From: Tabrizicola flagellatus
Lineage (GTDB): Bacteria > Pseudomonadota > Alphaproteobacteria > Rhodobacterales > Rhodobacteraceae
NCBI RefSeq assembly: GCF_008271465.1
Contig: NZ_VMDU01000001.1
Coordinates: 558,001 to 622,000 of the forward strand
Direction: 5' to 3'
Length of the DNA stretch: 64,000 nt
In this document: piece after piece, positions 28,220 to 62,571 of the stretch
Numbering within the stretch: the first letter of the stretch is position 1
Layout: every line of letters starts with the position of its first letter
Program-made: the position numbers and the translations under genes
Notes under the pieces: model-generated
Told to the model about the DNA's origin: nothing
Database searches by the model: none
What the model saw: the letters and a program-made list of their open reading frames with translations, nothing else

Positions 28220-28375
28220 GTAGCTCTCGACTGCCCGATTTTAGTGTAGAGCCTGTAAGCCTCAGAAAATAAGAGAACAAATCGAAGGCTGACCTGAACA
28301 CTTCGATGCCAGTGGCGCTATCGGGATGGAACCGGGATCGAACAACTCGGTCGCGCTCTGGCCGGAACACGAGCT

Positions 28376-48496: not shown

Positions 48497-48696
48497 CTTG
48501 GCTCTTCATTGAAGGGGTTTCCGTGGGCAGCCCGGCAGTTCTTGCTGTCCATTGGACAAAGCCGCTTACGTCACTGGCGCGGTACTTGTGGAGACCCTGA
48601 TTTTGCGGAGATGGGGTGGATGCCGCTCTCACCCTGACGGCATCGCGATGTGCCATACTCGTGGTGTCGAAGCACAAGCTGAAGGAGAGGGCATCC

Positions 48697-49728
48697 ATGG
48701 AAGAAGTTAGCATCATCGGGGTCGATCTGGCAAAGAACGTGTTCCAGCTGCACGGGGCGGCGGCGGACGGGGCGATCGTGTTCCGCAAGAAGCTGTCGCG
48801 CCTTCAGTTTGCACGGTTCATGGCGGATCATCCTGCCTGCGAGGTGGCGATGGAGGCGTGTCCCAGCGCGCACTATTGGGCGCGGGAATTGTCCGCCTAC
48901 GGGCACAGCGTCCGGCTGATTGCGCCGCATTACGTCAAGCCGTTCATCAAGCGTCAGAAAAACGACGCCGCCGACGCGGAAGCAATTGCGGAGGCGGCCA
49001 CGCGTCCGACCATGCGGTTCGTCGAACCCAAGACCGAAGACCAGCAGGCCCGGGCGGTGGCGTTTCGCGCCCGCGAGCAGATCGTGAAGCAGCGGACCGA
49101 GGCGATCAATGCCCTGCGCGCGCACCGCTATGAATTCGGGCACGTCGCGCCGGAAGGGGTGGGATATATCCCGCGGCTGGCGAAGGTGGTCGATGATCCG
49201 GGTTCGGGCCTGCCTGACCTGGCGCGAGACATCTGCCGCATGGTTCTGGAACAGATCGACCTGTTGACGTCCCGCCTCACCGCAGTTTCGTCAAAGCTCG
49301 CCGCCGCGTCCAGGGCGGCCGCCATGCCCCGGCAGTTACAGACCATGCCGGGTGTCGGTCCGATCACCGCGCTCGCGGTCGAAACCTTCGCGCCGCCGAT
49401 GGAGCAGTTCCGGCGCGGGCGCGATTTCGCCGCCTGGCTCGGGTTGGTACCGCGGCAACATTCTTCTGGCGGAAAACAGAGGCTGGGGAAAACATCGAAG
49501 ATGGGGCAGCGGGACATCCGGCGACTGCTTGTCACCGGCGCGATGGCGGTGGTCCGCTGGGCCCTGCGCCGTGGCGCACCGCAAAATCCTTGGCTTGAGC
49601 GCATGCTGGAACGCAAGCCGCCGATGGTCGCGGCCTTCGCACTGGCCAACAAGATGGCGCGCAGGATCTGGGCGATGCTCACGCGCGGCGAGGACTATCG
49701 CGATCCGGTGATCGCCAGCGCTGCCTGA
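48697..49728 (+). CDS. IS110/IS1111 transposase
   Basis: 343 residues from ATG 48697 (GGAGAGG upstream). The N-terminal RuvC-like DEDD domain shows D10 (IIGVDLAKNVFQLHG), E53 (AMEACPSAHYW), D90 and D93 (RQKNDAADAEAIAEA). The C-terminal Transposase_20 domain shows MPGVGPITALAVETF and the catalytic-Ser region RQHSSGGKQRLGKTSKMG. It looks intact. The enzyme family recombines without conventional transposition and is guided by an RNA encoded in the element's non-coding end. Confidence 0.93.
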   Translation: MEEVSIIGVDLAKNVFQLHGAAADGAIVFRKKLSRLQFARFMADHPACEVAMEACPSAHYWARELSAYGHSVRLIAPHYVKPFIKRQKNDAADAEAIAEAATRPTMRFVEPKTEDQQARAVAFRAREQIVKQRTEAINALRAHRYEFGHVAPEGVGYIPRLAKVVDDPGSGLPDLARDICRMVLEQIDLLTSRLTAVSSKLAAASRAAAMPRQLQTMPGVGPITALAVETFAPPMEQFRRGRDFAAWLGLVPRQHSSGGKQRLGKTSKMGQRDIRRLLVTGAMAVVRWALRRGAPQNPWLERMLERKPPMVAAFALANKMARRIWAMLTRGEDYRDPVIASAA

Positions 49729-49976: not shown

Positions 49977-50023
49977 TGAGAGCGGCATCCACAAGAGAAG
50001 GTTCGACGTCAGGCCCATCCCCT

Positions 50024-50167
50024 CCGCCACTTGCCCTAGCGAAAGCGTTCTCCCGATCCGGCCGCGGCCGGATTTTCTCGTTGTTTTCGAGGGTTATGCA
50101 GGACTGGCTGAGCACTGGCCCCTGCGCCAGGAGGCCCGGAAGCCGTCTCTCAGGGCCGATATTCTCC
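50024..50167 (+). repeat. att-like repeat copy B
   Basis: About 85% identical to 28076-28219 without gaps. It begins CCGCCACTTGCC; the bases before it (GGTTCGA at 50000-50006, then CCCATCCCCTCCG) resemble the T-arm and acceptor end of a tRNA-Ser different from the one at 27992. A terminator-like hairpin ATCCGGCC/GGCCGGAT (50056-50063, 50066-50073) followed by TTT is preserved. No complete tRNA can be built here; the IS ends directly upstream. From 49998 to 50355 there is no gene. Confidence 0.82.
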
Positions 50168-50171
50168 ACAC

Positions 50172-50275
50172 CTGTTGACTGGACGCGCAAAGGTTCAGTT
50201 CACGCAACCTGTTGAAATCGAATGGTTTCGGTCGATGAAAAGCTGTTGACTTCGACGACAGGGGCTACCTGTCGA
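50172..50275 (+). repeat. Four direct repeats CTGT(T/C)GA behind att copy B
   Basis: CTGTTGA starts at 50172, 50209 and 50243, and CTGTCGA at 50269, all in the same orientation and mostly preceded by A/G-C or AC-C. Spacing is 37, 34 and 26 bases. They fill the gap between att copy B and vsr and could be integrase arm sites or regulatory boxes. Confidence 0.4.
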
Positions 50276-50355
50276 GATGGAACGAATATCGAACCTTCGC
50301 CAATGAGGCGAGGCGTTCGGAAGATCAGCCCGGGTTGCTTTCAGCACTACTCCAG

Positions 50356-50823
50356 TCATTCCGTGTGGCGAATGTCGCCTTCGCCGATCTCGATACTGGG
50401 CGCGCCAGTTGCCAGCCATGAGACCAGCGCAGAGCAGGTCGCAGTGACCTGGTTCGGCTTTCGCAACGCGCATTCCCATACTGTCGCCACGCGCCACCCA
50501 TCTGCAATCAGCGCCTCGCATGCCGCACGATCGCGCCTGACATTCGCGGCGAACTTCTCTGCCCAGAACTCGGGGCGGGTCGCGGGCGTGGTCGCGTAAC
50601 GGCAGCCTTCGTGACGGTGCCAGAAGCAGCCATGCACGAAGATGACGGCCCGGTGCTTCGCGAGGATCATATCCGGCCGACCGGGGACACCCTTTCCATG
50701 CAGCCGATACCGGAAGCCGCGCGCGTGCAAGGCGCGCCTCAGCACCATTTCCGGCTTCGTATCCTTGCCCCGTATCCCGGACATCATCCGCGAGCGGGTC
50801 TGTCTGTCGACGATGTCCGCCAT
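50356..50823 (-). CDS. vsr: Very-short-patch repair endonuclease Vsr
   Basis: 155 residues from ATG 50823 (MADIVDRQTRSRMMSGIRGK); upstream codons to 50997 are antisense of the methyltransferase gene. Vsr nicks DNA at T:G mismatches that arise by deamination of 5-methylcytosine. Visible features are the metal-binding Asp51 (PGRPDMIL), the aromatic/His block HGCFWHRHEGC (64-74) with zinc ligands, and WECAL (116-120). Divergent from the C5-methyltransferase gene, the usual partner. Confidence 0.95.
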   Translation of the reverse strand: MADIVDRQTRSRMMSGIRGKDTKPEMVLRRALHARGFRYRLHGKGVPGRPDMILAKHRAVIFVHGCFWHRHEGCRYATTPATRPEFWAEKFAANVRRDRAACEALIADGWRVATVWECALRKPNQVTATCSALVSWLATGAPSIEIGEGDIRHTE

Positions 50824-50890
50824 TTGCCTCCTGGCCTCTGCGTCCGGACCTGGTATACAGCTTGTAATCCGAATTCGAGAGGCCCCTGAT
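50824..50890. promoter_or_regulatory. Divergent vsr/dcm control region
   Basis: Only 67 bases separate vsr from the proposed methyltransferase start. A TATACA box (50854-50859, in CTGGTATACAGCTTG) and TAATCC nearby are the only AT-rich elements, and GAGAGG (50877-50882) precedes the TTG start. Promoter boxes cannot be fixed with confidence. Confidence 0.35.
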
Positions 50891-52531
50891 TTGCCAGCCA
50901 CTTTCGGCATCGTCGATCTGTTTGCCGGCCCTGGCGGGCTGGGCGAGGGCTTTTCGTCCCTCGATGTCGGCGGCCACGCGCCGTTCCGGATCGGCATCTC
51001 GGTCGAGAAGGAGGCCTCGGCGCATCGTACGCTGACGTTGCGCGCCTTTCTGCGGGCGTATCAGGCGCGTCTCGGGGCGTTGCCGAAGGCCTTCATCGAC
51101 TTCCACGCCGGACTGATCCCGGAGCCCGACTGGAGCGAGGTGGATGCGGCGGCGTGGCAGCATGCGACGGCGGAGGCGCAATGCCTCGAACTCGGGACGG
51201 AGCCGGCTGCCGCCGCCATCGATCATGCCATCGGTGCGCTGCGCCGGGATTTCGACGACACCATCCTGATCGGCGGCCCGCCCTGCCAGGCCTATTCGCT
51301 TGTCGGGCGCGCTCGGGCGAAGGGGAAGGTCGGATACGTCCCCGAGGAGGACGAGAGGCACTATCTCTTCCGCGAGTACATCCGCGTGCTCGACCGCCTG
51401 CGCCCCGTCGCCTTCGTCATGGAAAACGTCAAGGGCATGCTGTCCTCGACGGTCGAAAGCCGCCTCGTCTTCGAGATGCTGATGGAAGACCTCGCCTCGC
51501 TCGGCACCGGGCGGGGGCATCACTACGAGATGCGGGCGATCCGGGTGGCGGACGGCAGGGCCAGTCTGCAGGAGGCCGCACAGTCTTCGGATTTCATCGT
51601 CCGCGCCGAGGAATGGGGGGTGCCGCAGCGGCGTCACCGGGTGATCATCGTCGGCATCCGCTCAGATCTGGCGGACAGGGCCACCGGGACGAGTGTACCG
51701 GTTTCCGGGGTGACACGGACTGTCGATGACGCCATCGGCATGATGCCGGACCTGCGCAGCGGCCTGAGCCGAGGTCGCGATGACCCGGCGAGCTGGCGGC
51801 GAGAGGTCGTCGAGGCCGCCCGGTTGCTGGCAGGCATCCACCGGGGCAAGGAAGACGGGCCGCTGCGCGACGCCTTTTTCGCCGTTGCGACGGGCCTGAA
51901 GGATGGACAGCTGGCACCCCGTCTATCGGCATGGCGCCCCGAGGGCTACGGCACGTCGAACGACGAACTCCTCGCCTGGCTGGAGCGCCCTGCGTTGCGC
52001 GGTTTCGCCCAGCACGAGACACGCGGGCACATGCCCTCGGACCTCGGGCGCTATCTGTTCGCAGCCGTCTTCAGCGCGGTACGCGGTTACAGCCCCAAGG
52101 CCGCCGATTTCCCGCTGTCGCTCAGCCCCGACCACCGCAACTGGCACAGCGGCGTCTTCAACGACCGCTTCCGGGTCCAGCTCGCCGGCGAGCCATCGAC
52201 CACGGTCACGAGCCACATATCGAAGGACGGCCACTACTTCATCCACCCCGATCCCATGCAGTGCCGCAGCCTGACCGTGCGCGAGGCGGCGCGCCTGCAG
52301 ACCTTCCCGGACGACTACCTGTTCCTCGGGAACCGGACGCAGCAGTACGTGCAGGTTGGCAATGCAGTGCCGCCCTACCTCGCCCGCCAGATCGCCCAGC
52401 TTCTCTTGCGCGGCCTTTCCGGACCGCCGTCTTGCGAACCGCCAGGGACCGAAGCCTCCGAAATGGCTGCTCGCAGACGCGAGATTTCTTCGGCCAGGAC
52501 GCCCGCGTCCGAGAGCTTGCCGAGGAGATAG
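50891..52531 (+). CDS. C5-cytosine-specific DNA methyltransferase
   Basis: 546 residues from TTG 50891, which gives a standard beginning (ATFGIVDLFAGPGGLGEGF) with GAGAGG 8 bases upstream; ATG 50813 is an alternative that would overlap vsr. Motif I FAGPGG (11-16), motif IV with catalytic Cys132 (IGGPPCQAYS), motif VI MENVKG (177-182), motif VIII QRRHRVIIVG, motif X VQVGNAVPPYLARQI. The spacer between I and IV is long (about 110 residues), as in methyltransferases of Z1-type loci. The last 50 codons run antisense to the next gene. Protects or marks DNA for the adjacent system. Confidence 0.92.
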   Translation: MPATFGIVDLFAGPGGLGEGFSSLDVGGHAPFRIGISVEKEASAHRTLTLRAFLRAYQARLGALPKAFIDFHAGLIPEPDWSEVDAAAWQHATAEAQCLELGTEPAAAAIDHAIGALRRDFDDTILIGGPPCQAYSLVGRARAKGKVGYVPEEDERHYLFREYIRVLDRLRPVAFVMENVKGMLSSTVESRLVFEMLMEDLASLGTGRGHHYEMRAIRVADGRASLQEAAQSSDFIVRAEEWGVPQRRHRVIIVGIRSDLADRATGTSVPVSGVTRTVDDAIGMMPDLRSGLSRGRDDPASWRREVVEAARLLAGIHRGKEDGPLRDAFFAVATGLKDGQLAPRLSAWRPEGYGTSNDELLAWLERPALRGFAQHETRGHMPSDLGRYLFAAVFSAVRGYSPKAADFPLSLSPDHRNWHSGVFNDRFRVQLAGEPSTTVTSHISKDGHYFIHPDPMQCRSLTVREAARLQTFPDDYLFLGNRTQQYVQVGNAVPPYLARQIAQLLLRGLSGPPSCEPPGTEASEMAARRREISSARTPASESLPRR

Positions 52532-53529
52532 TCGAGAGCGTTACGTTCTCCCCGGTCAAGAGTAGCGTGGCCTTCCTGAAGGGTTTCGAGCGCGGATTGC
52601 GACTTCGGTGAAAGCCAACCGCGCTTCCCGGATTCCTGCCTCACTTTCCGGGCAGCATCCGCCATGCTCGACCCCGACATCGAGAGCTCGGCCTCAAGTA
52701 CCTCAACCTGTTTGCCGTCTTCCGATCGCCTGCCAGGTGCGGCGTCGGGGCTGTCCAGGATCCCCGACGTTCCGCCTCGAGTGGGGGCGGACTGATCGGG
52801 CACGCCGAAAACCCCGTCGAGGAAACTGGCGAGATCGCCCCGCGGCAGGTCCGCAAGGGACCTGATCTCGTTGCGGACCCGGATGCGGAGGATCGCGCGA
52901 CGCATGATGTCCTCCATGGCCCCCTTGCCATGATGGCGCGCAGCGCGGAGCCATGCCTCTGCTACGGCAAGGGCAAGAACGTGATCGCCCCCGATGCTCG
53001 GTCGCTCGGTAATCTGCACGAGGGCATCCTCGGTCAGCGCCTCCAGCAATCCCCAGCGCTCGGGATGCCCCGGCCCCCGGTCGAGTGCACGACCACGCAT
53101 CCAGAGCCTCTGGAAGGTATTGCGCACACCCCCGGCGTAGCGCTCTGTCGAGCTGCCGAAGCGCCAGTAGGTGATGTCCGGGGCCATGACAGCGGCAACG
53201 AACGCCCAGACATCATCCCGGAGGGCCTCGCCGGTAGTGAAGAGGTCGGATCGAGCAAGCCAGGCGGCGGCATCGGCATCGAAGCCGGCATGGGACTGCC
53301 GGGCGTCTTGCTGTCCAAACCCATGTTTCCGGGCAATTGCGACGAGGTCCTGCCGCACGGATGCAAGGTACGCCGCAGGGACGGGTGCGCCGCCGGTTGC
53401 GGCAAAGCGTACCTGATCAGGAAGATCATCGGGGCGAAAGCCCGCCCAAGCGGACGGGCCATGCTCGAGAAACCTGCGAACGATGACGTCGCAGGCCGGA
53501 CCGGGCAGTCTTGGAAGCAGAAACGTCAT
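52375..53529 (-). CDS. Unassigned protein of the Z1 defence operon (384 aa)
   Basis: From ATG 53529, overlapping the previous stop as ATGA. The N-terminal 190 residues are helix-rich with a conserved-looking block (DVWAFVAAVMAPDITYWRFG; VRNTFQRLWMRGRALDRGPG; WGLLEALTEDALVQITERPS), then AVAEAWLRAARHHGKGAMED. The C-terminal third is a charged, probably coiled or disordered stretch (LRAAISEASVPGG, ending RAR). It may belong to the DUF6339 group, but I cannot confirm that. Its last 157 bases overlap the end of the methyltransferase gene tail to tail. Confidence 0.75.
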   Translation of the reverse strand: MTFLLPRLPGPACDVIVRRFLEHGPSAWAGFRPDDLPDQVRFAATGGAPVPAAYLASVRQDLVAIARKHGFGQQDARQSHAGFDADAAAWLARSDLFTTGEALRDDVWAFVAAVMAPDITYWRFGSSTERYAGGVRNTFQRLWMRGRALDRGPGHPERWGLLEALTEDALVQITERPSIGGDHVLALAVAEAWLRAARHHGKGAMEDIMRRAILRIRVRNEIRSLADLPRGDLASFLDGVFGVPDQSAPTRGGTSGILDSPDAAPGRRSEDGKQVEVLEAELSMSGSSMADAARKVRQESGKRGWLSPKSQSALETLQEGHATLDRGERNALDYLLGKLSDAGVLAEEISRLRAAISEASVPGGSQDGGPERPRKRSWAIWRAR

Positions 53530-54434
53530 TCCGGAACTCCCGGCTCCGCGAGCGCAAGCATGGTTGAGCGGAAGACGCCGGGACGGCTTTCGAGGACAGA
53601 GCGGATGAAGGAAGCGTCCTTGCCAGGCCACGCCTTGCGCAGCCACGTTGCGGCTTGGGCGCCGAGCGACCTCGGCTCCGACGCATCCATCATCGTCTCG
53701 GCTTCGGGGTCGGCAAGAAACCGCTCGCAGATCTGACTCATGACGTCGCCAAGCAGGAACTGGATCGTGACCGGGTCCTCGTCCTCGATCCGCTGAAGGG
53801 TCTCGCCGGACTTCGCATTGAGGTAAAGACGTACCGCTCCGTGGAAATCGCGCGTCCAGTCCCCCGGCGACCAGTGCAGGTGCCACGGCGCAGCACCCGC
53901 AATTCCACCACCGAGCATCTGCGCGAGGTCTACCGTCTCTATGGGGAAGCGGGGCTCCTCACCCTCGAGCCTGACCCGAATAGTCTCCGACCAGAGCCGG
54001 TCACCGGGATGGACGGGTGACAGCGCCGAGGTCTCTGCGGGGGCATTCGCCAAATGGAATTCCGTCTGCAGGTCGAGGATCATCGAAAGCCGGCGGCCCT
54101 CGATGGTCTGCTCGAACTCCCATGAGGTCTCTCCCGAACGAAGCTCCCGACGCGTGCGGGAAAGGACCTGGCGGGGTAGCCTGCCCTGACCCGTCCCTAT
54201 CCTCACCGAGGCCGCCACAACGAGCTGATGGACCGGGATCCCGAGATCGGACGCTGCACGTTCGGGATCCAGGTGCAACGTCCTTCGAATTCGGATGTCG
54301 CTCGCGCTGTCCCAGTGGGGAAGGAACTCGCCCGCGGCGGACCATTCGACGCCGTCAAGGGAAATCTCCCACGCCGAGGCTTCCACGGCCGCCTCGGTCA
54401 GCGTGAGGAACGGGAATGCAACCCGACGATTCAT
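53526..54434 (-). CDS. Unassigned protein of the Z1 defence operon (302 aa)
   Basis: From ATG 54434 (MNRRVAFPFLTLTEAAVEAS), overlapping the ATPase stop as ATGA. Beta-rich N-terminal half (ASDIRIRRTLHLDPERAASD, LVVAASVRIGTGQGRLPRQV, SWEFEQTIEGRRLSMILDLQ) and a helical C-terminal half (VTIQFLLGDVMSQICERFLA; ATWLRKAWPGKDASFIRSVL). No nuclease, helicase or ATPase motif is visible. I do not recognise the family. Its fixed place between the GHKL ATPase and the 384-aa protein implies a structural or targeting role in the same complex. Confidence 0.78.
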   Translation of the reverse strand: MNRRVAFPFLTLTEAAVEASAWEISLDGVEWSAAGEFLPHWDSASDIRIRRTLHLDPERAASDLGIPVHQLVVAASVRIGTGQGRLPRQVLSRTRRELRSGETSWEFEQTIEGRRLSMILDLQTEFHLANAPAETSALSPVHPGDRLWSETIRVRLEGEEPRFPIETVDLAQMLGGGIAGAAPWHLHWSPGDWTRDFHGAVRLYLNAKSGETLQRIEDEDPVTIQFLLGDVMSQICERFLADPEAETMMDASEPRSLGAQAATWLRKAWPGKDASFIRSVLESRPGVFRSTMLALAEPGVPE

Positions 54435-56284
54435 GTTCCGACCTCCGGAATGACATCCGCATCGGCCGTCACCGCGCAATCATCCGGCACACGGACACGG
54501 ATCTCGAACCGTCCTTCCCGGCCGCCAAGGTCAATGGTGTCGCCAGCGGTTTCTGCCTTTCCGTCCAGCCACCTGACGGAAAGAACTTCAGGCCTGCCGA
54601 CGGTGTCGTCGACTGGTCCAAGCGTCGCGCCTTCCACTGCCACGGAGGCTGAAGCAATCAGCTTCGCGCCACTTCGCCGCGCGTCCTGCGTCACCTCCGT
54701 GAGGAAGACGGCAATACGCACGGCATCGCCAGCCTCGAGGCGCTCGAACACGGGACGACTTGCCCGCGCCCTCGAGGGTCGCCCGCCTCCTGAACCACCC
54801 GAACTGCGACGCCGCCCTGCGCCGTCGCCCCCGACGTTTTCGAGCACAGCCCCAAGGCGCCCGGCAAGGCGCGCAAGCGGTGGACCGGATCCGTCCCCCG
54901 GCCTTCGCGAGATCGGCTCCATGCCCATCTCGGAGGCGATTTCCTTCAGGCGCTTCAGCGCTATGTTGACGTAGCGCTTTTCGTTGCCTTTCGGCAGGTT
55001 GTCGGGAACCCAGTCATCATGGGCAGGCGGTTCGGAATCCGCAAAGGCCTGCTCTACCTCATCCTCGTCGCTGGCGATGAACACGCCTGCCCATTCCAGC
55101 CGCGCGTCGGGGAGCGGATTGCCCTCGAGATACTTCACGACGAGCTCAACGGGCCGCATCAGCGCAATGTGGTGCATCTGCTCGGGGACAAGCCGGACGT
55201 CCTCGTCCGCAGTCAGGTAGCGTCTCGGCGACCGCAGGCCCTTCTCGATGGCGAGCGTGCCGAGGATCTTCTGTGGCCTCTGGGACTCGATCCGCCGAAC
55301 ATTGTTTCCCATGCGGGCCCGCGCCGCGGTCATTGCCTTGCACAACAGATCGAATGGGGCGAATTCCTCTGGCGCCGGAACGAGCAGTTCCCGATCCTCG
55401 ACCATCACACTGCAGGCAAAGCGGTGCTTCGCCGGGGCGTCGCGCATCATCCGCGGCCAGAAATTCCAGAGCAGCGTCTCGACGATCCGGTTTCCGGTTG
55501 CCGTCAGATCGTCCTCGTCGGTCTGGAAGCCGAGGATCATGATCGTGGTCCCCGATCTGCCCGGGCCGCGTTCCGGCAGACCGAGTTGACCGGCCAGCGC
55601 CGAGGCGGTATCACCCGTTGCCGGATCGGCGATCCCGTCCGCCGGATCCCTGACGCCCCACCAGTGACGGCCTGTGAAGCGCCTCCTCATCCCGTTCTCC
55701 GGCTTTTCGAAGGAGCGGCCGACATGGCATGCCATCAGGCGCCGCCCCTCCGGACCGGCTCCGTCGGGCAGCGTGTCGACGATGATCGTGCTGCACGCGC
55801 TGGCACGATACAGGGCGACCTTGCCGAAGCCGTAGGTGCCGCCCCCCTGCTCGGTGTCCCGAGCTGTGCCGATGTTGCGAAGGAAGTCGATGAAGTTGGT
55901 CTGTTCGGTTCCTACCGGGATCCGGTCCGACCGCGTTGGGCCGCCAAGCCCCACGGTGCCGAAGTCGCAGATCTCGAGTACGACCGCACTTTCGGCCTCG
56001 AGGAGGCCTGAGATCGTGGCGGACGAACGCGGTTCCTCCGGAATCTCGGCAAGGACGATGCTCCGAAGGATTTCGCGCTGGGTGTCCGAGAGAGTCCGCA
56101 GCCTGATCAGGATCTCGGGCCCGACGCCCGGTCGCGCGGCGTCGGCAATGTTCTGGACAGATTCCCGGATGACCGTCTGCAACGGATCGAGCGTTGGTGC
56201 ACCGAGCAGACGGCGGAAGTTCTCGCCGATGTTTCCGGTCGAACCGTAAGGTTCGGAATGGAGCTCGAGCGGGCTCAAGGTCAT
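54431..56284 (-). CDS. GHKL (MORC/MutL-like) ATPase of the Z1 defence operon
   Basis: 617 residues from ATG 56284. The Bergerat ATP-binding fold is near the N-terminus: N-box E41-x3-N45-x2-D48 (RESVQNIADA), D107-F-G-T (EICDFGTVGLGG), and the glycine lid GGGTYGFGKVALY (147-159). A transducer-like middle region (LRNIGTARDTEQ upstream, then RFACSVMVEDRELLVPAP) precedes a basic linker (GRRRSSGGSGGGRPSRARAS) and a beta-sandwich-like C-terminus. Prokaryotic MORC-like ATPases with Z1 helicases and methylases were described by Iyer, Abhiman and Aravind (2008). Overlaps both neighbours by 4 bases. Confidence 0.87.
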   Translation of the reverse strand: MTLSPLELHSEPYGSTGNIGENFRRLLGAPTLDPLQTVIRESVQNIADAARPGVGPEILIRLRTLSDTQREILRSIVLAEIPEEPRSSATISGLLEAESAVVLEICDFGTVGLGGPTRSDRIPVGTEQTNFIDFLRNIGTARDTEQGGGTYGFGKVALYRASACSTIIVDTLPDGAGPEGRRLMACHVGRSFEKPENGMRRRFTGRHWWGVRDPADGIADPATGDTASALAGQLGLPERGPGRSGTTIMILGFQTDEDDLTATGNRIVETLLWNFWPRMMRDAPAKHRFACSVMVEDRELLVPAPEEFAPFDLLCKAMTAARARMGNNVRRIESQRPQKILGTLAIEKGLRSPRRYLTADEDVRLVPEQMHHIALMRPVELVVKYLEGNPLPDARLEWAGVFIASDEDEVEQAFADSEPPAHDDWVPDNLPKGNEKRYVNIALKRLKEIASEMGMEPISRRPGDGSGPPLARLAGRLGAVLENVGGDGAGRRRSSGGSGGGRPSRARASRPVFERLEAGDAVRIAVFLTEVTQDARRSGAKLIASASVAVEGATLGPVDDTVGRPEVLSVRWLDGKAETAGDTIDLGGREGRFEIRVRVPDDCAVTADADVIPEVGT

Positions 56285-57294
56285 CCGGACAATTCCTGAA
56301 GGAGTGAGGCGAATTCCGCCGGCGGGCATTCTGCGTCGGTAGCATGCCCGAGATCGATCCTGTAGGTCGCATCAACAATACCTGCAGGGATCCTTCCGCC
56401 GACAAAGCTCGAAGGCACGATCCGGGGAAGACCTGGGCCGACACGATAGAGGCGTTCTGCCTCCGCCCTGAATGCGAAACGGTTCCATGCGGCGTCATGC
56501 ACATCCGTGCAGCCGACGGCCGCGAGCAGCGCCCGCAGTCCCGCAGGGTCGTCGGCGCGCAGCAAGGCCCTGTCTCCGAGAGAAGCCACGGTGAGAAGGC
56601 CGCCCTCGACCGCCTCGAGGACCAGATGCGCAAGGTGCAGAGATCCGCCCGCAGGCGGTTCCAGCTGATCGATGCCGTTGATGGTGACTTCGTTGGCCCC
56701 AGCGCCGAGCGATGCCTTGACCTCCAGCGAGACGTCTCTGGCCCGGAAGTCGTGCCGGTCTCCCGCCGGTCCGCGCCAGCAGCGCCAGGCCGAAGGCGAA
56801 ATGTCGAGGAGCCGGTTCAACACGACCAGCTCGGCCACGAGGCCGACAACCCGCGGTCTGTCGATCTCTCTCCCTGCTGGCGGGACGAGAAGTTCGCGGA
56901 AGTCATCGAGCGCACCAGCCACAGCCGCGACCCCGTCCTTCCGGTCGGCTAGACGGCGGACGATGTCATCCACGACCTCGCCGAACACGGCTTCGAGATC
57001 CGGCGACGTGCAGATGACATCGAGAAACCGGATCGCGCGTTGCCCATTCGTGAGAGTCGTTAAGCCGATCTTCAAGGCACTGCCCGTCTCGAGAGCACTG
57101 ATCGTCTCGCCCGCCGCAAGCGGCACCAGCAGCCGCGCCTCCCCGCCGGAACCGACGGCCAGCCGGACAGGCCCCGCCTTCGTCGTTGCGCGAAGAGGCA
57201 ACGAGGGGATGCCGAGACCTTCTCCGTCGATGTGCCCTGCCCGAAGGACATTCCAGCGTCCCTGCGCCGGGCTCTCCTGCTTGGGTCTAGACAC
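56281..57294 (-). CDS. PD-(D/E)XK motif protein (DUF4420-like) of the Z1 defence operon
   Basis: 337 residues from GTG 57294, with GGAGG 6 bases upstream; it overlaps the Z1 stop by 8 bases. The nuclease core is visible: E155 (VVGLVAELVVLNRLLD), D182 (DRHDFRARD), E191-V-K193 (SLEVKASLG). The arrangement E - D - ExK fits DUF4420 nucleases found beside Z1 helicases. Predicted to cut DNA that lacks the methyltransferase mark. The frame is open upstream only through antisense of the Z1 gene. Confidence 0.87.
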   Translation of the reverse strand: MSRPKQESPAQGRWNVLRAGHIDGEGLGIPSLPLRATTKAGPVRLAVGSGGEARLLVPLAAGETISALETGSALKIGLTTLTNGQRAIRFLDVICTSPDLEAVFGEVVDDIVRRLADRKDGVAAVAGALDDFRELLVPPAGREIDRPRVVGLVAELVVLNRLLDISPSAWRCWRGPAGDRHDFRARDVSLEVKASLGAGANEVTINGIDQLEPPAGGSLHLAHLVLEAVEGGLLTVASLGDRALLRADDPAGLRALLAAVGCTDVHDAAWNRFAFRAEAERLYRVGPGLPRIVPSSFVGGRIPAGIVDATYRIDLGHATDAECPPAEFASLLQELSG

Positions 57295-59920
57295 CTGCTG
57301 CCTCCGTCTGCGCGGCCTCCTCCTCCTCGATCGCAGCGACTTCCTCGGCCGACAGCGGCTGCAGCTCCACCGAGACGAAGTTCCCGCCCTCCGTGACCGA
57401 TCCGGGGAAGACGATCCCGATGCCGAGCACGTCATGCACGGCATCGAGCGGCACTCTCGCCTTGCTCTCGCGCTCGGGGCGCGAGTCCCGCGCGATGGGA
57501 TAGAGCAGGAGAAGCGGAACCTGTCCCACCGCGTCCAACCTCGCCGCCTTGAGTTCCTCCCAGCTTCCGTTGCCTCCGACATCGCCGGCACAGTCGAAAA
57601 CCACATCGCGTCTCGACATGAGCGCCTTGATGTCCGCGATTCCGTTCGTGTCATTCAACCTTGCGCGGTTGACCGTCCTGACGGAACCGATCGTGCCGAG
57701 AGGAGCATCGGATTCGCGACCGCGGCCGGACTCGACGATACCGATGTTCCATGATGAAAGGCGCGGATCCGGCCCGTCGATGAACGGTACCAGCATGGCC
57801 GGCAGCAGGTCCGCTTGGGAGGACTCGACGGAATAGGCCTCGAGGAATCTGCGGACGGACGACCTCGGCACGTTGCGCCAGAGCTTGCGCTCCCCTGCGT
57901 CCCGATCACGCAGGCCAAGCGCCTCGATACGGCTGACAAGTTCGCTGCCTGCTGCCCAGTTTCTTTCGAGCAGTCCAGCGTCAGTGTGAGCGAAACGGAA
58001 CGTCTGGCGATGGGTTCCCCAATAGCTGACAGCACAGCGCCTCGCGCCGCGCATCTTGTTTGCCGCCGTGATCGCCATGCCGGGAATTGCCCTGATCCGG
58101 ACCGCCAGGTCCATCGGCGTGAGGTCGCGGAGCCGATACTGCTCGATGTCCTCCCTGATTTCCTGCTCGACGGAGGCAAGTGCCCTGAACCTCAGCTTCA
58201 GGCCGCGCGGCATCCAGATCCGCGGAAGATCCTCGTAGCCGGGCCGATAGCCGAACCAGCGTCCCATCTGGAGGAGCGTGTCGTACTGGTTTGCCGTCCG
58301 CAGGAAATAGCTGACCATCAGGCCTTCGAGGGTCAGGCCCCGAGCGAGGATGGAGCCGCCGACCACGATGTAGGTCTTCGGCCCGCCGGAATAATCGATC
58401 CTGTCGTCGCTTGCGCCGTTCTCGACCGGGAACTCGATGCCTTCGAGCACTTCCGGCAGATACTGGAAGACATCTTCCAGTGTGACCGGCCTGGCATCAG
58501 TTAGGTCGTCCGGCACGCGTCCCTGTTCTTCGTCCCAGACCCGACCGAGCCGGGATCCGATGTCCGATGCCGGATCGACAAGATCCTTGCTGTGCACGTC
58601 GACCCAGCCCTCGATCAGCGCCGCAACCCGCTCGTGCGCACGAACGTAGGCGGATGTGTGCACAAGCATCGTCATGTGCTGGTCCCCATGTCCGCGGGCG
58701 CGCCGAGCGGCGCAGCACGCCAGGAAGTAGAGGATTGCGGCCTCGAGACTCGGCGTCATGGCAGGCTGGAAGGCGTCGCGCTCTTGCCTGCTGCGCGGCT
58801 GCAGCCCCGCCTCGTCCTCATCCGGCACGTCGCGGATCATGTCGAGCCCTTCCTCGTCGGGCCGCACGTCCTCCGGGTCGACCGGCGTCTTCCCGAACAG
58901 ACGCTCGGTGCCGAAGTACCGATCTGGTTTCGGCAGTGCCGTGATGAAGTCCCGTGGATAGAGGTCGTCGAGCTCCTGGCCGTCGACACGATAGGGGTTG
59001 ATCAGCACATTCGCGAAGGGCGTGGCAGTGTAGCCGACGTAGGTGACGGCCGGGAGAAGGCCGAGAAGTTCCCGGATGCGATGGTTGATGGCCGTCATGT
59101 CGAGCTCGCCCCGCGCCGAGTTCACGCTTGCCTGGTCGCATTCGTCGTCGATCACCAGAACCCGGAGCTGCTGCAACACGGCCGGCAATGTCTCCCGGAT
59201 GGCCTTGCGCAATTCCCCCAGGGGCGAAACGTTCTTCTTGATGACGGCCAGCTGCGCCTTGTCGGAATGGGAGAGGAAACCGCCCTGAGGCGGTGCCCGG
59301 AAATCCCTGTCCACCTCGTTCGACGTGAGCACCTGCCAGTTAAGCGGATTGCGCCGAACGAGGTCGGAATACAATCTGAGCTGGGTCTGATGGCGCAGCT
59401 TGTTCGTCAGACCGGCGAGGACGATCACGGTGTCGTAGCCTGAATCTAGTGCCTTGGCGATGACGGCCGTCATGTTCGCAGTCTTGCCCGACTGGACGTG
59501 GCCGACGACCAGTCCGCGGCAGGAGAACTGGCCCCTCGCCGGATCCCGCGGGTTCTCGAGAAGTGAGACCACCTCGTTCGAGGCGTCATCAATGCCGCCC
59601 ACGTCGTCCTCGTGCCACTTCTTCTCGTTGAGAAGGAAGGACTTCACGGCAGGCCAGTGCAGGTCCGTCGGTCTCGGGCCTAAGTACCATTCCGGCCGTT
59701 TCCTGATCACCGAGTGGCTGTGGAGAATCTCGATCTGTTCGAACTCGCGGGCAACGATGGCGGCCGCTTCGTCGATTTCAGCACACAGATGAGCCGCAAG
59801 CCCGGGGGAGAGGAGGTCGAGTTCTGCGCGAACGGCAGCAACCGCGCTTTCGAGATTGCCATGCCGAGGCAGCGCCTGGCGAATTCGTTCAACCAATCCA
59901 TCAACCTGAGGCCCCGGCAC
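57287..59920 (-). CDS. Z1-domain superfamily 2 helicase-like protein
   Basis: 877 residues from GTG 59920 (GGGAGGG 4-5 bases upstream), first gene of the operon. Walker A GHVQSGKT (140-147), Walker B VLVIDDECDQAS, motif III GYTATPFANVL, and the Z1 hallmark block VGGSILARGLTLEGLMVSYF followed by LLQMGRWFGYRPGYEDLPRI. Z1 proteins are endonuclease-linked helicases found in restriction-like loci with methylases and MORC-like ATPases. It would translocate on DNA and recruit or drive the PD-(D/E)XK nuclease. Confidence 0.92.
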   Translation of the reverse strand: MPGPQVDGLVERIRQALPRHGNLESAVAAVRAELDLLSPGLAAHLCAEIDEAAAIVAREFEQIEILHSHSVIRKRPEWYLGPRPTDLHWPAVKSFLLNEKKWHEDDVGGIDDASNEVVSLLENPRDPARGQFSCRGLVVGHVQSGKTANMTAVIAKALDSGYDTVIVLAGLTNKLRHQTQLRLYSDLVRRNPLNWQVLTSNEVDRDFRAPPQGGFLSHSDKAQLAVIKKNVSPLGELRKAIRETLPAVLQQLRVLVIDDECDQASVNSARGELDMTAINHRIRELLGLLPAVTYVGYTATPFANVLINPYRVDGQELDDLYPRDFITALPKPDRYFGTERLFGKTPVDPEDVRPDEEGLDMIRDVPDEDEAGLQPRSRQERDAFQPAMTPSLEAAILYFLACCAARRARGHGDQHMTMLVHTSAYVRAHERVAALIEGWVDVHSKDLVDPASDIGSRLGRVWDEEQGRVPDDLTDARPVTLEDVFQYLPEVLEGIEFPVENGASDDRIDYSGGPKTYIVVGGSILARGLTLEGLMVSYFLRTANQYDTLLQMGRWFGYRPGYEDLPRIWMPRGLKLRFRALASVEQEIREDIEQYRLRDLTPMDLAVRIRAIPGMAITAANKMRGARRCAVSYWGTHRQTFRFAHTDAGLLERNWAAGSELVSRIEALGLRDRDAGERKLWRNVPRSSVRRFLEAYSVESSQADLLPAMLVPFIDGPDPRLSSWNIGIVESGRGRESDAPLGTIGSVRTVNRARLNDTNGIADIKALMSRRDVVFDCAGDVGGNGSWEELKAARLDAVGQVPLLLLYPIARDSRPERESKARVPLDAVHDVLGIGIVFPGSVTEGGNFVSVELQPLSAEEVAAIEEEEAAQTEAAGV

Positions 59921-60033
59921 AATGCCCTCCCGACTGTAACGCTGGCAATCTCCAGAAGAACTGGATCAAGCCCAAGCAATCACGCGATGATTTCGGGATC
60001 AAGACGAGCATTGGACTGGAAGTGCCGAAAATG

Positions 60034-60408
60034 TCAGAAAGACTTCCGCTGGCTCTCCCACTCCTCCGGGAACCCGTTCATCAGCCGGGCCAAGGTCACC
60101 CCCGGTCCCTGCCTGCTGTCGAGGATCGCCGCCACCATGTCGGGTGCGAGCAGCGTCAGGCGCATGACGCGTGTGAGGTAGGAGGGCGCGATGCCCTCTC
60201 GCTCGGCAAGCTCGGCGATGGTGGCGAAGTCGCCGGCTTCCAGCATACGCTTCCAGCGGAAGGCGCGCGCAAGGGCCTTGACGAGGGCGTCGTCGGGCCG
60301 CCGCGGGGCCTGCGCGCCGTCGGGGAGGGCGATTACCTTCCGCCCGCCGCGCCGGACGATGCGGAACGGGACATGGAGCGTCATGGTTTCGGCTGCGGGG
60401 CAGGTCAT
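60034..60408 (-). CDS. Small HTH protein of the serine-recombinase module
   Basis: 124 residues from ATG 60408 (GGAG 7 bases upstream), overlapping the recombinase stop as ATGA. Central helix-turn-helix-like stretch (FATIAELAEREGIAPSYLTR, then VMRLTLLAPDMVAAILDSRQ) preceded by KALARAFRWKRMLEAGD. This protein regularly follows large serine recombinases in alphaproteobacterial elements and may be an accessory DNA-binding factor. Function unproven. Confidence 0.75.
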   Translation of the reverse strand: MTCPAAETMTLHVPFRIVRRGGRKVIALPDGAQAPRRPDDALVKALARAFRWKRMLEAGDFATIAELAEREGIAPSYLTRVMRLTLLAPDMVAAILDSRQGPGVTLARLMNGFPEEWESQRKSF

Positions 60409-61730
60409 GCGGCTACTCCGATCCCGCCGGCCAGCATCTCGCGAGCGAGGCTACTGAGTCCGTCGACGCGGAGCCTAACGTTGAGCCCATCCGTGCCGAT
60501 GTCCACCCGCTCGACCAGCAGCGCCACGATTCGTGCCTGCTCGGCGGGGAACAGTTCGTCCCACAGTGGATCCAGCTGCTGGAGGGCCGAATGGGCGTCT
60601 GTTTCGGTCATTCCGGCGGCATGGGCGCGCGCCGCCTTCCACGTCCCGGCCACGATCTCCGGCTGGCGGAACACGGCGCGCAGCTGGTCAATGACCGCGG
60701 CCTCGATCTCCCCCGCTGGCACGCGGCCGATGGGGCAGGATCCAGCGCCATGCTTCAGCACTGTCTGGCTGACATAGTAGCGGTACAACCGCCCACCCTT
60801 GCGCGTATGCGTCGGCGAGAAGGCCGCGCCACCCGGGCCGAACAGCAGCCCCTTCAGCAGTGCGGGCGTCTCAGCGCGGGTGCGCGCGGCACGCTTGCGC
60901 GGGCTCTCCTGCAGGATGGCGTGGACGCTGTCCCACGTCTCGCGGTCGATGATGGCGTCGTGCTCGCCGGGGTAGCTGTCGCCCTTGTGCACCGCCTCGC
61001 CGATGTAGGCGCGGTTGCTCAGCATCCGGTAGATGTATTTCTTGTCGATCCGGTTGCCGCGCGGCGTCTGAATGCCGCGTTTCGCGATCTCTCTCGCCAG
61101 CTCCGTGCCCGACCCGATCTCGAGGAAGTGGGCGAAGATCCAGCGGACGTGCGCGGCGGCTTCCTCGTCCACCAGCAGTTTGCGGTTTTCCACCCGGTAG
61201 CCGTAGGGCGGCACGCCCCCCATCCACATACCCTTCTTCCGGCTGGCGGCGACCTTGTCGCGGATGCGCTCGGCCGTCACCTCGCGCTCGAACTGGGCGA
61301 AGGACAGCAGGATGTTCAGCGTCAGCCGCCCCATCGACGTGGTCGTGTTGAACGACTGCGTGACCGAGACAAAGGTCACGTCGTTGCGGTCGAACACCTC
61401 CACCAGCTTGGCGAAGTCGGCGAGCGAGCGGCTGAGACGGTCGATCTTGTAGACCACGACCACATCGACTAGCCCGTCCTCAATGTCGGCCATCAGACGC
61501 TTGAGGCCGGGGCGTTCCAGCGTGCCGCCGGAGATGCCGCCGTCGTCGTACTGATCGCGGACCAGCACCCAGCCCTCGGAGCGCTGGCTGGCGATGTAGG
61601 CCTCGCATGCCTCCCGCTGGGCGTGGAGGCTGTTGAATTCCTGCTCCAGCCCCTCCTCGGAGGATTTGCGGGTGTACACCACGCAGCGCAGCTTGGGGAC
61701 GACCTTCGATTTTTCGGGTGGCTTCGTCAT
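60405..61730 (-). CDS. Large serine recombinase (resolvase/invertase family integrase)
   Basis: 441 residues. The N-terminal resolvase domain contains the catalytic Ser in VVYTRKSSEEGLEQEFNSL and the Arg cluster DRLSRSLADFAKL. A Recombinase domain follows (GGVPPYGYRVENRKLLVDEE, RIDKKYIYRMLSNRAYIGEA). The zinc-ribbon region (LLKGLLFGPGGAAFSPTHTR) lacks the usual Cys pairs. Such enzymes integrate or excise elements at short att sites. It overlaps DUF2924 and the small HTH gene by 4 bases each, and is the only integrase-type enzyme in the window. Confidence 0.93.
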   Translation of the reverse strand: MTKPPEKSKVVPKLRCVVYTRKSSEEGLEQEFNSLHAQREACEAYIASQRSEGWVLVRDQYDDGGISGGTLERPGLKRLMADIEDGLVDVVVVYKIDRLSRSLADFAKLVEVFDRNDVTFVSVTQSFNTTTSMGRLTLNILLSFAQFEREVTAERIRDKVAASRKKGMWMGGVPPYGYRVENRKLLVDEEAAAHVRWIFAHFLEIGSGTELAREIAKRGIQTPRGNRIDKKYIYRMLSNRAYIGEAVHKGDSYPGEHDAIIDRETWDSVHAILQESPRKRAARTRAETPALLKGLLFGPGGAAFSPTHTRKGGRLYRYYVSQTVLKHGAGSCPIGRVPAGEIEAAVIDQLRAVFRQPEIVAGTWKAARAHAAGMTETDAHSALQQLDPLWDELFPAEQARIVALLVERVDIGTDGLNVRLRVDGLSSLAREMLAGGIGVAA

Positions 61731-62182
61731 CTCCGCCCCCTGTGGTTCTTAAGGCCGAAGAAGACCCACCCGTTCCAGCGCGTGCCGGTGATGGCGCGGG
61801 CGATGGCAGACAGCGACTTGTAGGGCCGCCCCTGCCATTCGAACCCGTCGGTGGTGACGGTGACGATCTGCTCGACGCCCTGCCATTCTCGCAGCAGCCG
61901 CGTGCCGGTGATCGGGCGGTCACGATCGGCGCGCATTCCGCGCTTCTTCCTGTCGCCGCCGTCCAGTTCCTCGCCGAGTCGTTCCAGCCGCCGGATCGTC
62001 TCGGGCTTCAGCCCGCCATACGCGAGTTCCTGAATGCGGTAGGCTAGGCGGGATTCAAGGTAGCGCCGGTTGAACGGCGGCGGTTCGCTGTCGAACAGGT
62101 CGCGCCACTGCTTCTTCAGGTCTGGTGTCGGGGTCGTCTTCAGCGCGGCCAGGCGCGCGGGGATGGGGTCGTGCGTCGTCAT
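61727..62182 (-). CDS. DUF2924 protein of the serine-recombinase module
   Basis: 151 residues from ATG 62182 (MTTHDPIPARLAALKTTPTP). DUF2924 is recognised from LKKQWRDLFDSEPPPFNRRY and LESRLAYRIQELAYGGLKPE, then GTRLLREWQGVEQIVTV and WQGRPYKSLSAIARAITG. It nearly always stands upstream of a large serine recombinase in phages and islands; role unknown. 4-base overlaps with genes on both sides. Confidence 0.87.
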   Translation of the reverse strand: MTTHDPIPARLAALKTTPTPDLKKQWRDLFDSEPPPFNRRYLESRLAYRIQELAYGGLKPETIRRLERLGEELDGGDRKKRGMRADRDRPITGTRLLREWQGVEQIVTVTTDGFEWQGRPYKSLSAIARAITGTRWNGWVFFGLKNHRGRR

Positions 62183-62382
62183 GCGGTCTCCGTTGGGTTC
62201 GGGGTTGCATGACGGCATTGGTCGGCCGGATAGTGTAGGCAACGTTCTCCAGTATCGTCAGATACTTCCCGCCCATCCCGCATCCGCAACCGAACCAGCC
62301 CGAGCGCCAGCAGGCCGCACAACTCGGCGCGGCGTTCTGCGGGCGTCATCTGGTCCGGCGGGAGAGGATTAGGGCGTTTCAT
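62179..62382 (-). CDS. Small protein heading the serine-recombinase module
   Basis: 67 residues: QMTPAERRAELCGLLALGLV and RLRMRDGREVSD, a pattern seen in small proteins at the head of recombinase/DUF2924 modules. Overlaps DUF2924 as ATGA. No function known. From 62383 to 62571 I see no gene; the divergent start of the next gene implies promoters there. Confidence 0.6.
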   Translation of the reverse strand: MKRPNPLPPDQMTPAERRAELCGLLALGLVRLRMRDGREVSDDTGERCLHYPADQCRHATPNPTETA

Positions 62383-62571
62383 GTCTTGGTAGCCGTGATC
62401 GGTGGTGCTTACCGATCAAAAGCCACTAGGCCGTCGAGGACGGGACATCTCAGAGGAACGAAATGTAGAAATGCGAACGGGGCGAGAACATCATGACTTG
62501 CCGATCACGGATTTGTCCATGATTATCGCAGGTTGAATCAATTAAGAGCAGTAGTTCATCGAGGTAAGTTC

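What the first reader, a model, noticed from the sequence alone, without database searches (positions are those of the whole stretch)
50356..59920. Vsr / C5-methyltransferase / Z1 / PD-(D/E)XK / GHKL ATPase locus as one defence system
Five minus-strand genes overlap by 4-8 bases (Z1 helicase, PD-(D/E)XK, MORC-like GHKL ATPase, two unknowns), with a converging methyltransferase and divergent vsr. Z1, MORC-like ATPases and methylases were linked computationally (Iyer, Abhiman and Aravind, 2008), but I know of no mechanism for the complete set. It would combine methyl-marking, an ATP-driven clamp, a helicase and a nuclease.
Basis: partly seen in the sequence, partly recalled or inferred. Interest (0 to 1): 0.75.

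Follow-up and report, generated by a model that had tools for sequence, protein, structure and literature searches.

The report
Seven-gene methylation-guided phage restriction cassette
A bacterium carries a tightly packed set of seven genes that probably marks its own DNA with methyl groups and destroys unmarked invading DNA; such a set was predicted before from sequence, I found no test of it, and its marking part turns up beside other defence machines too.

Summary
In detail: seven intact genes (vsr, C5-methyltransferase M, Z1 helicase Z, DUF4420 nuclease P, GHKL ATPase G, an unnamed protein U, DUF6339 protein D) lie at 50356-59920; junctions Z-P-G-U-D overlap by 8, 4, 4 and 4 nt. In 80 genome loci picked by G, U is in 79, Z and P in 78, D in 77, M in 72, vsr in 63; 75 have all five core genes, always in this order. 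Key catalytic residues are conserved and all seven genes show purifying selection. The reading is partly right. It is not Mza proper (no sigma factor or AIPR, scores far below cut-offs), and G has the paraMORC2 ExxxH motif (80 of 80), not the MORC motif (0 of 80). The set fits "Type I" of a putative system in print (Miller 2022). New here: G-U-D-like triads, matching parts of PADLOC candidate PDC-M33, also occur without Z and P; related M/vsr pairs accompany this system, two such triads, and a Mza-type operon (M 76% identical). Best explanation: M marks self, Z-P-G-U-D restricts unmarked DNA using ATP, vsr repairs deaminated marks. No experiment. New member of a predicted kind.

The parts
50356..50823 (-). 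vsr: T:G mismatch endonuclease, 155 aa
   Evidence: PF03852 5.8e-29; TIGR00632 137 bits, cut-off 98; aligns with E. coli Vsr 1cw0 2.2e-34; Asp51 and His69 conserved 61/62
50824..50890 (.). 67-nt divergent gap between vsr and methyltransferase starts (probable promoter region)
   Evidence: start codons and upstream bases; gaps of similar size in L005 and L006 by match ends; no promoter test made
50891..52531 (+). C5-cytosine DNA methyltransferase (class A), about 546 aa (TTG start; ATG 50813 is the alternative)
   Evidence: PF00145 3.3e-42; best PADLOC hit DrmMII 6.4e-78; PCQ 55/56, ENV 56/56
52375..53529 (-). D: DUF6339 family protein, 384 aa; all-helical residues 1-240, low-confidence tail from about 246 that runs into the methyltransferase 3' end
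   Evidence: PF19866 in 39 of 61 family members, best 3.4e-9, the window protein itself not hit; label on homologues; AF2 model
53526..54434 (-). U: uncharacterised protein, 302 aa; Ig-like beta-sandwich (about 12-158) plus helical C-terminal part
   Evidence: AF2 pLDDT 93.5; generic Ig-like matches, best Z 9.1; present in 79 of 80 loci
54431..56284 (-). G: GHKL ATPase of paraMORC2 type, 617 aa; N-box RESVQNIADA, DFGTVGLGG, GGGTYGFGK, EPPAHDDW at 418
   Evidence: E41, N45, D48 78/80; D107, G112, G152, G154, K155 79/80; G147 75/80; E418/H422 80/80, MORC motif 0/80; PADLOC PDC-M33A 4.8e-13
56281..57294 (-). P: DUF4420 PD-(D/E)XK nuclease, 337 aa; E155, D182, E191-x-K193
   Evidence: PF14390 1.5e-41; the four residues 78/78; MzaD 41 bits, cut-off 420
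57287..59920 (-). Z: helicase-like ATPase with Z1 domain, 877 aa; G145-K146-T147, D258-D259-E260, QMGRWFG 551-557
   Evidence: PF10593 5.6e-65; GKT and DDE 72/74, QMGRWFG 73/74; MzaC 355 bits, cut-off 1500
60034..60408 (-). small protein, possibly HTH/ParB-like, in the shared mobile block
   Evidence: TIGR00180 6e-4, below its cut-off; inside the shared DNA block
60405..61730 (-). large serine recombinase (mobility, not part of the defence unit)
   Evidence: PF00239 8.1e-40, PF07508 1.6e-16; inside the shared block
61727..62242 (-). DUF2924 protein, in the shared mobile block
   Evidence: PF11149 4.9e-52; block ends near 62383
50014..50181 (.). copy of a tRNA-Ser 3' end and its trailer at the vsr-side edge of the mobile block (possible attachment end)
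   Evidence: 83% identical to 28066-28233, tRNA-Ser at 27992-28081; a tRNA-Ser gene lies at or near this end in 5 of 9 close loci

Best explanation
An ATP-dependent, methylation-guided restriction system in modules. (1) M methylates cytosine in a short site and so marks host DNA; vsr cuts T:G mismatches left when 5-methylcytosine deaminates, so the mark is not mutated away. (2) The paraMORC2-type ATPase G with U and D forms an ATP-gated DNA clamp that tells unmarked from marked DNA. (3) Once licensed, the Z1 motor translocates and the DUF4420 nuclease P cuts the unmarked DNA. Shown by computation: the seven-gene unit, its conservation, conserved catalytic residues, purifying selection, sharing of modules. 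Inferred: that the mark protects, that G-U-D is the sensor/clamp and Z-P the effector, and that phage or plasmid DNA is restricted. The recognition site is unknown; CCWGG is a guess from EcoRII-type neighbours.
For: In 80 loci Z 78, P 78, U 79, D 77, M 72, vsr 63. Of 47 loci with at least 4 kb on both sides, M is in 46 and vsr in 42; M is upstream in 26 and downstream in 44 of 70 loci; M and vsr are within 2 kb in 62 of 63 (which mends): the partner is kept while its place is not. No other family of ORFs of 120 aa or more recurs in over 9 of 80 loci. Catalytic residues kept, dN/dS 0.09-0.39 for all seven. Dokdonella (gammaproteobacterium by title) shares only 50380-59933, essentially the seven genes. 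Z1 precedent: CglI/NgoAVII pair a C5-methylase with a nuclease and a DEAD-Z1 ATPase whose hydrolysis is required for cleavage; with CglI the ATPase needs unmethylated sites, with NgoAVII less strictly (PMC4267653 abstract and passages; PMC5737866 abstract). GHKL precedent: VcSduA needs both its GHKL ATPase and its PD-(D/E)XK residue (PMC12137116 passages). A Mza-type operon in G444 has beside it an M 76% and a vsr 70% identical to the window's. In Halomicrobium an HhH-GPD glycosylase gene follows Dcm, as expected if that place serves mark repair.
Against: No experiment. M was swapped for an unrelated class (25% identity) between L023 and L026, whose Z, P, G, U, D are 71-84% identical, so the core may not read the site, or both classes methylate the same site. 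L086 has the whole core and no M within 6 kb on one side and 8 kb on the other. G gives two or more ORF hits in one direction in L018, L032, L063 and L083, which may be decay or sequencing error. G-U-D-like triads elsewhere have no recognised nuclease. No convincing PDB relative by sequence of Z, P, G, U or D; D has no fold match at E <= 0.001.
Confidence: 0.6

Rival explanations
1. Two independent neighbours: a Dcm/Vsr-type modification pair and a separate five-gene defence system that does not read the methyl mark.
For: M/vsr class swapped while the core stayed; L086 core without M nearby; related M/vsr pairs also sit beside other systems.
Against: M in 46 of 47 well-flanked loci despite changing place and strand; the unit is shared as one DNA block between named genera; M/vsr of the same class recurs with a Mza-type operon and with two triads.
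Confidence: 0.17
2. Type IV-like logic: the core attacks modified phage DNA, and M belongs to a companion system.
For: Five of seven class B loci have an EcoRII-like restriction gene that could itself account for M (Pfam tested in L023 only).
Against: The 60 class A loci show no such gene in the same comparison; a methyl-specific nuclease beside a methylase would endanger the host (inference).
Confidence: 0.08
3. Abortive infection: activation by phage leads Z-P to degrade host as well as phage DNA, with M setting the threshold.
For: [quoted passage not shown]
Against: No AIPR in the own genome; no further gene recurs in over 9 of 80 loci.
Confidence: 0.08
4. MORC-like silencing: G-U-D clamps and compacts unmarked DNA, blocking its expression, and Z-P only finishes the job.
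For: Eight G-U-D-like triads occur without Z1 or DUF4420 nearby, 6 of 8 with a C5-methylase and 5 of 8 with vsr; 6 of 8 genomes lack both Z1 and DUF4420 entirely.
Against: Homology of the middle proteins to U is weak (hhalign 2.6e-4, probability 42; 2e-4, probability 47) and those of L107/L108 do not match the other middles (probability under 1); four of the eight ATPases lack the EPxxH motif; an unrecognised nuclease in U or D is not excluded.
Confidence: 0.07

Closest known systems
Putative system 'Type I' of Miller, Stern and Burstein 2022 (PMC9523054; the section on it read in full)
   Same: Z1 protein, PD-(D/E)XK protein and C5-methyltransferase as core, three further genes, association with DNA repair endonucleases, wide spread in bacteria.
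   Different: The text I read does not name the three further genes and gives no mechanism or test. Identity with this locus is my inference.
Third operon type (SFII helicase with the Z1-like C-terminal domain + RE-fold nuclease + MORC/paraMORC, often DCM and Vsr) of Iyer, Abhiman and Aravind 2008 (PMC2292703; parts 1 and 2 of 4 read)
   Same: Z, P, GHKL, M, Vsr; looping by the ATPase proposed.
   Different: U and D are not described in the parts read.
Mza (mzaABCDE; Gao 2020, not held; described)
   Same: Z1 (MzaC 355 bits) and DUF4420 (MzaD 41 bits); related M/vsr pair beside a Mza-type operon in G444.
   Different: No sigma factor, AIPR or HATPase_c_3-type ATPase; instead paraMORC2-type ATPase, U and DUF6339.
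PADLOC candidate PDC-M33
   Same: Model A hits the GHKL, model B the middle protein of L112, model C the DUF6339 protein of some loci.
   Different: Models B and C do not hit the window's U and D; no single locus that I scanned was hit by all three; here Z1 and DUF4420 are added.
CglI / NgoAVII restriction systems
   Same: C5-methylase with a DEAD-Z1 ATPase and a nuclease; ATP-dependent cleavage.
   Different: PLD/B3 nuclease instead of DUF4420; three genes only.

Membership tests
Mza (mzaABCDE) | Z1 protein MzaC at the NCBIfam equivalog cut-off | tested here: not met
   355 bits against 1500; PADLOC MzaC 2.9e-82 shows kinship only
Mza (mzaABCDE) | DUF4420 protein MzaD at cut-off | tested here: not met
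   41 bits against 420
Mza (mzaABCDE) | AIPR protein MzaE | tested here: not met
   no PF10592 match in the own genome; present in the Mza-type operon L116, 7.2e-91
Mza (mzaABCDE) | sigma-factor MzaA and MutL-like MzaB | tested here: not met
   no Mza A or B model and no sigma-70 family hit among the locus proteins; a sigma-2-like match of D, Z 5.2 over 61-64 residues, is no better than common chance
MORC proper | GhXhhpXXRhl motif in the S5 domain (Iyer 2008) | tested here: not met
   pattern in 0 of 80 homologues and not in the window
paraMORC2 | strongly conserved ExxxH in the C-terminal part of the S5 domain (Iyer 2008) | tested here: met
   E418 and H422 in 80 of 80, the only E-H pair at that spacing over 90%; that it lies in the S5 domain was not modelled
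paraMORC2 | conserved GHKL ATP-binding motifs | tested here: met
   E41, N45 78/80; D107, G112, G152, G154, K155 79/80; G147 75/80
Miller 2022 Type I | Z1 + PD-(D/E)XK + C5-methyltransferase + three more genes, near a DNA repair endonuclease | tested here: met
Miller 2022 Type I | the three additional genes are the same families | not testable with these tools
   not named in the main text; no look-up of supplements was allowed
PDC-M33 (PADLOC) | subunits A, B and C all hit | tested here: not met
   A hit 4.8e-13; no B or C hit for the window proteins; kinship only by profile comparison
CglI-type restriction system | PLD/B3 restriction subunit | tested here: not met
   no such family among the locus proteins
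Restriction-modification by function | unmodified DNA is cut and the methylated site is spared | not testable with these tools
   needs experiment

The most novel reading that the evidence does not exclude
The G-U-D triad (paraMORC-type ATPase, Ig-like protein, DUF6339 protein) is a self-contained, methylation-directed DNA clamp that silences or compacts unmarked foreign DNA without a nuclease, a prokaryotic counterpart of eukaryotic MORC silencing; the window's cassette is this clamp with a Z1/DUF4420 cutter added, and one exchangeable methylase/Vsr pair supplies the self-mark to this system, to Mza-type operons and to the clamp alone.
Probability: 0.17. Interest if true: 0.85.

Novelty: new member of a known kind. 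Interest (0 to 1): 0.5.

Why it matters
The kind is predicted, and I found no test of it. The modular comparison gives a way to find out what bacterial MORC-like ATPases do: related methylase/Vsr pairs occur with a nuclease-bearing system, with a Mza-type operon, and with triads that have no recognised nuclease, so single-module deletions can separate sensing, clamping and cutting. It would also bear on how eukaryotic MORC proteins act on methyl marks.

Tried and rejected
Mza proper: rejected on cut-offs and missing genes. MORC proper: rejected on motif. DUF6339 as a sigma-like DNA reader: Z 5.2 over 61-64 residues only. U as an AGS-C/Pycsar-like sensor: Z 8.0, tied with many unrelated Ig-like domains. 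DUF4420 as the specificity subunit tracking M: its identity does not follow M in pairs such as window-L019 and window-L022 (by eye, no statistic). Virus-borne copies: 39 pattern matches in viral contigs, none a relative. Viral structure library for D: nothing at E <= 0.001. PDB by sequence at E <= 1: G and P none, Z one at 0.85, D one at 0.053, U four at 0.26-0.31, none convincing. Direct repeats of 11 nt or more between the two ends of the mobile block: none in 7 loci. Literature: (open-access library, capped listings); none of the papers listed was seen to test the full set. PDC-M33 is not named in the main text of PMC12988326.

Mended: one search took the weakest instead of the best hit where a locus had several; one search repeats it with the best hit (48, 47, 43 and 61 of 62 became 47, 46, 42 and 62 of 63). 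Rows dropped: motif counts used only hits covering at least half the profile (M 56, Z 74, vsr 62); identity tables used at least 60% coverage; near-duplicates were removed before folding (U 75 to 58, D 77 to 61 sequences, then the window added and one left out in each). L056 and L064 among the 80 loci are the same contigs as the profile seeds L006 and L005, so they match by construction.
Full report
Observation. The window holds seven open genes at 50356-59920. From the start codons the overlaps are Z1/DUF4420 8 nt, DUF4420/GHKL 4, GHKL/U 4, U/DUF6339 4; the methyltransferase converges (157 nt overlap with the end of the DUF6339 gene) and vsr is divergent. Pfam names Vsr, C5-methylase, DUF4420 and Z1. 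The GHKL protein has no Pfam hit at 0.001 but has the N-box, G1 and G2 motifs. Two proteins had no family in the window. One is a DUF6339 protein: homologues are labelled so in annotated plasmids, and 39 of 61 family members hit PF19866 at E <= 1, best 3.4e-9, the window protein not. The other, here U, remains unnamed.

Is it one unit? A scan of 84,980 species-level genomes with a six-sequence GHKL profile confirmed 319 relatives; the best 80 became loci. Profiles for the seven families found GHKL in 80 (by selection), U 79, Z1 78, DUF4420 78, DUF6339 77, methyltransferase 72 and vsr 63 of the 80. Two of the 80 are the same contigs as profile seeds. All five core genes are in 75 of 80 and in the same order and strand in all 75, while the M/vsr pair lies on either side and either strand. 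Of 47 loci with 4 kb or more on each side, 46 have M and 42 have vsr; M and vsr are within 2 kb of each other in 62 of 63 loci that have both. The exception without M is L086; L030, L066, L073 and L079 lack vsr. No other family of ORFs of 120 aa or more recurs in over 9 of the 80 loci. Record titles include alpha- and gammaproteobacteria, cyanobacteria, Nitrospinota, Rhodothermales, Acidobacteria, Phycisphaerales and Luteolibacter. In draws of genomes, own genome included, U was in 3 of 289 of the class and the GHKL profile in 11 of 398 of the phylum, 3 of them strongly. No relative was found in viral contigs.

Is it functional? In G, E41, N45 and D48 are kept in 78 of 80 and D107, G112, G152, G154 and K155 in 79 of 80, G147 in 75; the four DUF4420 residues E155, D182, E191, K193 in 78 of 78; Z1 GKT and DDE in 72 of 74; M PCQ in 55 and ENV in 56 of 56; Vsr D51 and H69 in 61 of 62. 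The window has all of them. dN/dS between the window and five loci is 0.09-0.39 in all seven genes; the two highest GHKL values come from L018 and L032, where the G gene gives two ORFs and the comparison is unsafe (also L063 and L083 give more than one G hit).

Mobility. DNA of 91-96% identity extends from about 49995-50446 to 61927-62383 in Gemmobacter, Chelatococcus, Paracoccus kondratievae, Chelativorans and Rubellimicrobium thermophilum (in Gemmobacter up to the contig end); it includes a small HTH-like gene, a serine recombinase and a DUF2924 gene (families). In Dokdonella only 50380-59933, essentially the seven genes, is shared (76%). In 5 of 9 close loci a tRNA-Ser gene lies at or near the vsr-side end, and the window keeps a copy of a tRNA-Ser 3' end and trailer at 50014-50181. 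No direct repeat of the two ends was found.

What the parts are. G has EPPxHD with E418 and H422 in 80 of 80 homologues and the MORC-specific pattern in 0 of 80; Iyer 2008 gives ExxxH as the paraMORC2 mark. U is predicted with high confidence (pLDDT 93.5) as an Ig-like beta-sandwich followed by helices; its matches are generic. D is all-helical, residues 1-240 in blocks of pLDDT 95 or more but one of 88, without a clear fold match; its tail from about 246 is poorly predicted. I saw no known catalytic site in either, so an adaptor or sensor role is my inference.

Modules. G-U-D-like triads also occur without Z1 and DUF4420 beside them. In haloarchaeal plasmids the triad is related to the window's by profile comparison (G 1.7e-22; U 5.2e-6, probability 86; D 1.6e-5, probability 79) and lies near a Dcm; in Halomicrobium an HhH-GPD glycosylase gene follows Dcm where vsr might stand. 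Eight weaker GHKL cousins in the phylum all have a middle and a third gene in the same places; a C5-methylase is nearby in 6 of 8 and vsr in 5 of 8; in L111 an N6/N4 methylase lies near instead. Third proteins match D (5.2e-6, 5.6e-6 and, haloarchaeal, 2.6e-5); middle proteins match U weakly (2.6e-4, probability 42; 2e-4, probability 47; haloarchaeal 4.3e-6, probability 87); crosswise comparisons give probability 0.08-1.4; but the middles of L107/L108 do not match the other middles (0.2-0.3; all). The EPxxH motif is in 4 of 8 cousins and 4 of 4 haloarchaeal ATPases, and absent from L109, L110, L111 and L114, so those four may be another paraMORC family. PADLOC's PDC-M33 models hit these places: A the GHKL of every locus scanned, B the middle protein of L112, C some DUF6339 proteins; no scanned locus was hit by all three. 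Six of the eight genomes have no Z1 and no DUF4420 match at all. The two that do, G444 and G334, carry them at other loci. The G444 locus has, by domain content, a full Mza-type operon: sigma factor, HATPase_c_3 ATPase, Z1, DUF4420 and AIPR (not scored against the Mza models), and beside it an M 76% and a vsr 70% identical to the window's; that M is 88% identical to the one of window-type locus L081. In L109 and L110, M of 52% and 49% identity accompanies triads without Z1. So related M/vsr pairs serve three settings. Conversely the pair can be replaced: L023 and L026 have cores 71-84% identical but M only 25%. Of 67 loci with enough of M, 60 fall with the window in class A and 7 in class B at 35% linkage; five of the seven class B loci have an EcoRII-like restriction gene (Pfam tested in L023 only). 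Against the window, the region between motifs VIII and IX is 37% identical or more in 56 of 60 class A loci and 12-21% in class B. If the core reads the mark, both classes should protect the same site; EcoRII's CCWGG (recalled) is then the first guess. If not, the core does not read the site itself. This is open.

Mechanism. The best-tested Z1 relatives that I found, CglI and NgoAVII, pair a C5-methylase, a nuclease and a DEAD-Z1 ATPase; hydrolysis is required for cutting, and the CglI ATPase needs unmethylated sites, NgoAVII less strictly (PMC4267653 abstract, passages and one section), with translocation proposed (PMC5737866 abstract). VcSduA shows that a GHKL ATPase and a PD-(D/E)XK nuclease can both be needed in one phage defence protein (PMC12137116 passages). 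By analogy: M marks, vsr maintains the mark, G-U-D clamps and checks DNA, Z moves, P cuts. All steps after the gene content are inference.

Prior art. Iyer 2008 linked the Z1-type helicase, RE-fold nuclease, MORC/paraMORC, DCM and Vsr. Miller 2022 predicted a defence system whose Type I has Z1, PD-(D/E)XK, C5-methylase and three more genes, associated with DNA repair endonucleases. A Corynebacterium island with Z1, EcoRII, Dcm, DUF4420 and three unclassified genes was noted in 2017 (PMC5379612 passages). I saw no experiment on the full set in the searches listed under Tried and rejected; Gao 2020 could not be opened.

Noticed in passing
L116:1-10534 (G444, same family as the window's genome): Mza-type operon by domain content (sigma factor, HATPase_c_3 ATPase, Z1, DUF4420, AIPR) with a methyltransferase 76% and a Vsr 70% identical to the window's.
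   Followed up: yes
window 50014-50181 and 27992-28233: Copy of a tRNA-Ser 3' end and trailer at the cassette edge; four further similar stretches in the own genome, one at a tRNA-Ser(GGA), two near contig ends.
   Followed up: partly
L010, L011, L092 (haloarchaeal plasmids): Two G-U-D-like triads near one Dcm; in Halomicrobium an HhH-GPD glycosylase gene follows Dcm, and a gene labelled DrmE lies about 10 kb from one triad.
   Followed up: partly
L023, L035, L038, L059, L079: EcoRII-like restriction gene near the class B methyltransferase and the five-gene core.
   Followed up: partly
L018, L032, L063, L083, GHKL gene: More than one GHKL ORF hit in a row; sequencing error or decay not told apart.
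   Followed up: no
L086:12802-15791: The only well-flanked core without a methyltransferase has a PADLOC PDC-M01 A/B-like pair directly after the core.
   Followed up: no
L109:10145-11938: A reverse transcriptase gene (RVT_1 2.7e-19) beside a triad without Z1.
   Followed up: no
L111:13837-15183: An N6/N4 methylase with a ParB_N domain near a triad that has no C5-methylase.
   Followed up: no
window 52375-52796: The tail of the DUF6339 gene overlaps the methyltransferase 3' end; DNA identity breaks here in four of nine close loci.
   Followed up: no
window 48616-49728: IS110-like transposase beside the cassette (named by eye, no family search run).
   Followed up: no
window 33789-37526: 1245-aa ORF that resembles a gene transfer agent or phage tail host-specificity protein (by eye, not searched).
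   Followed up: no
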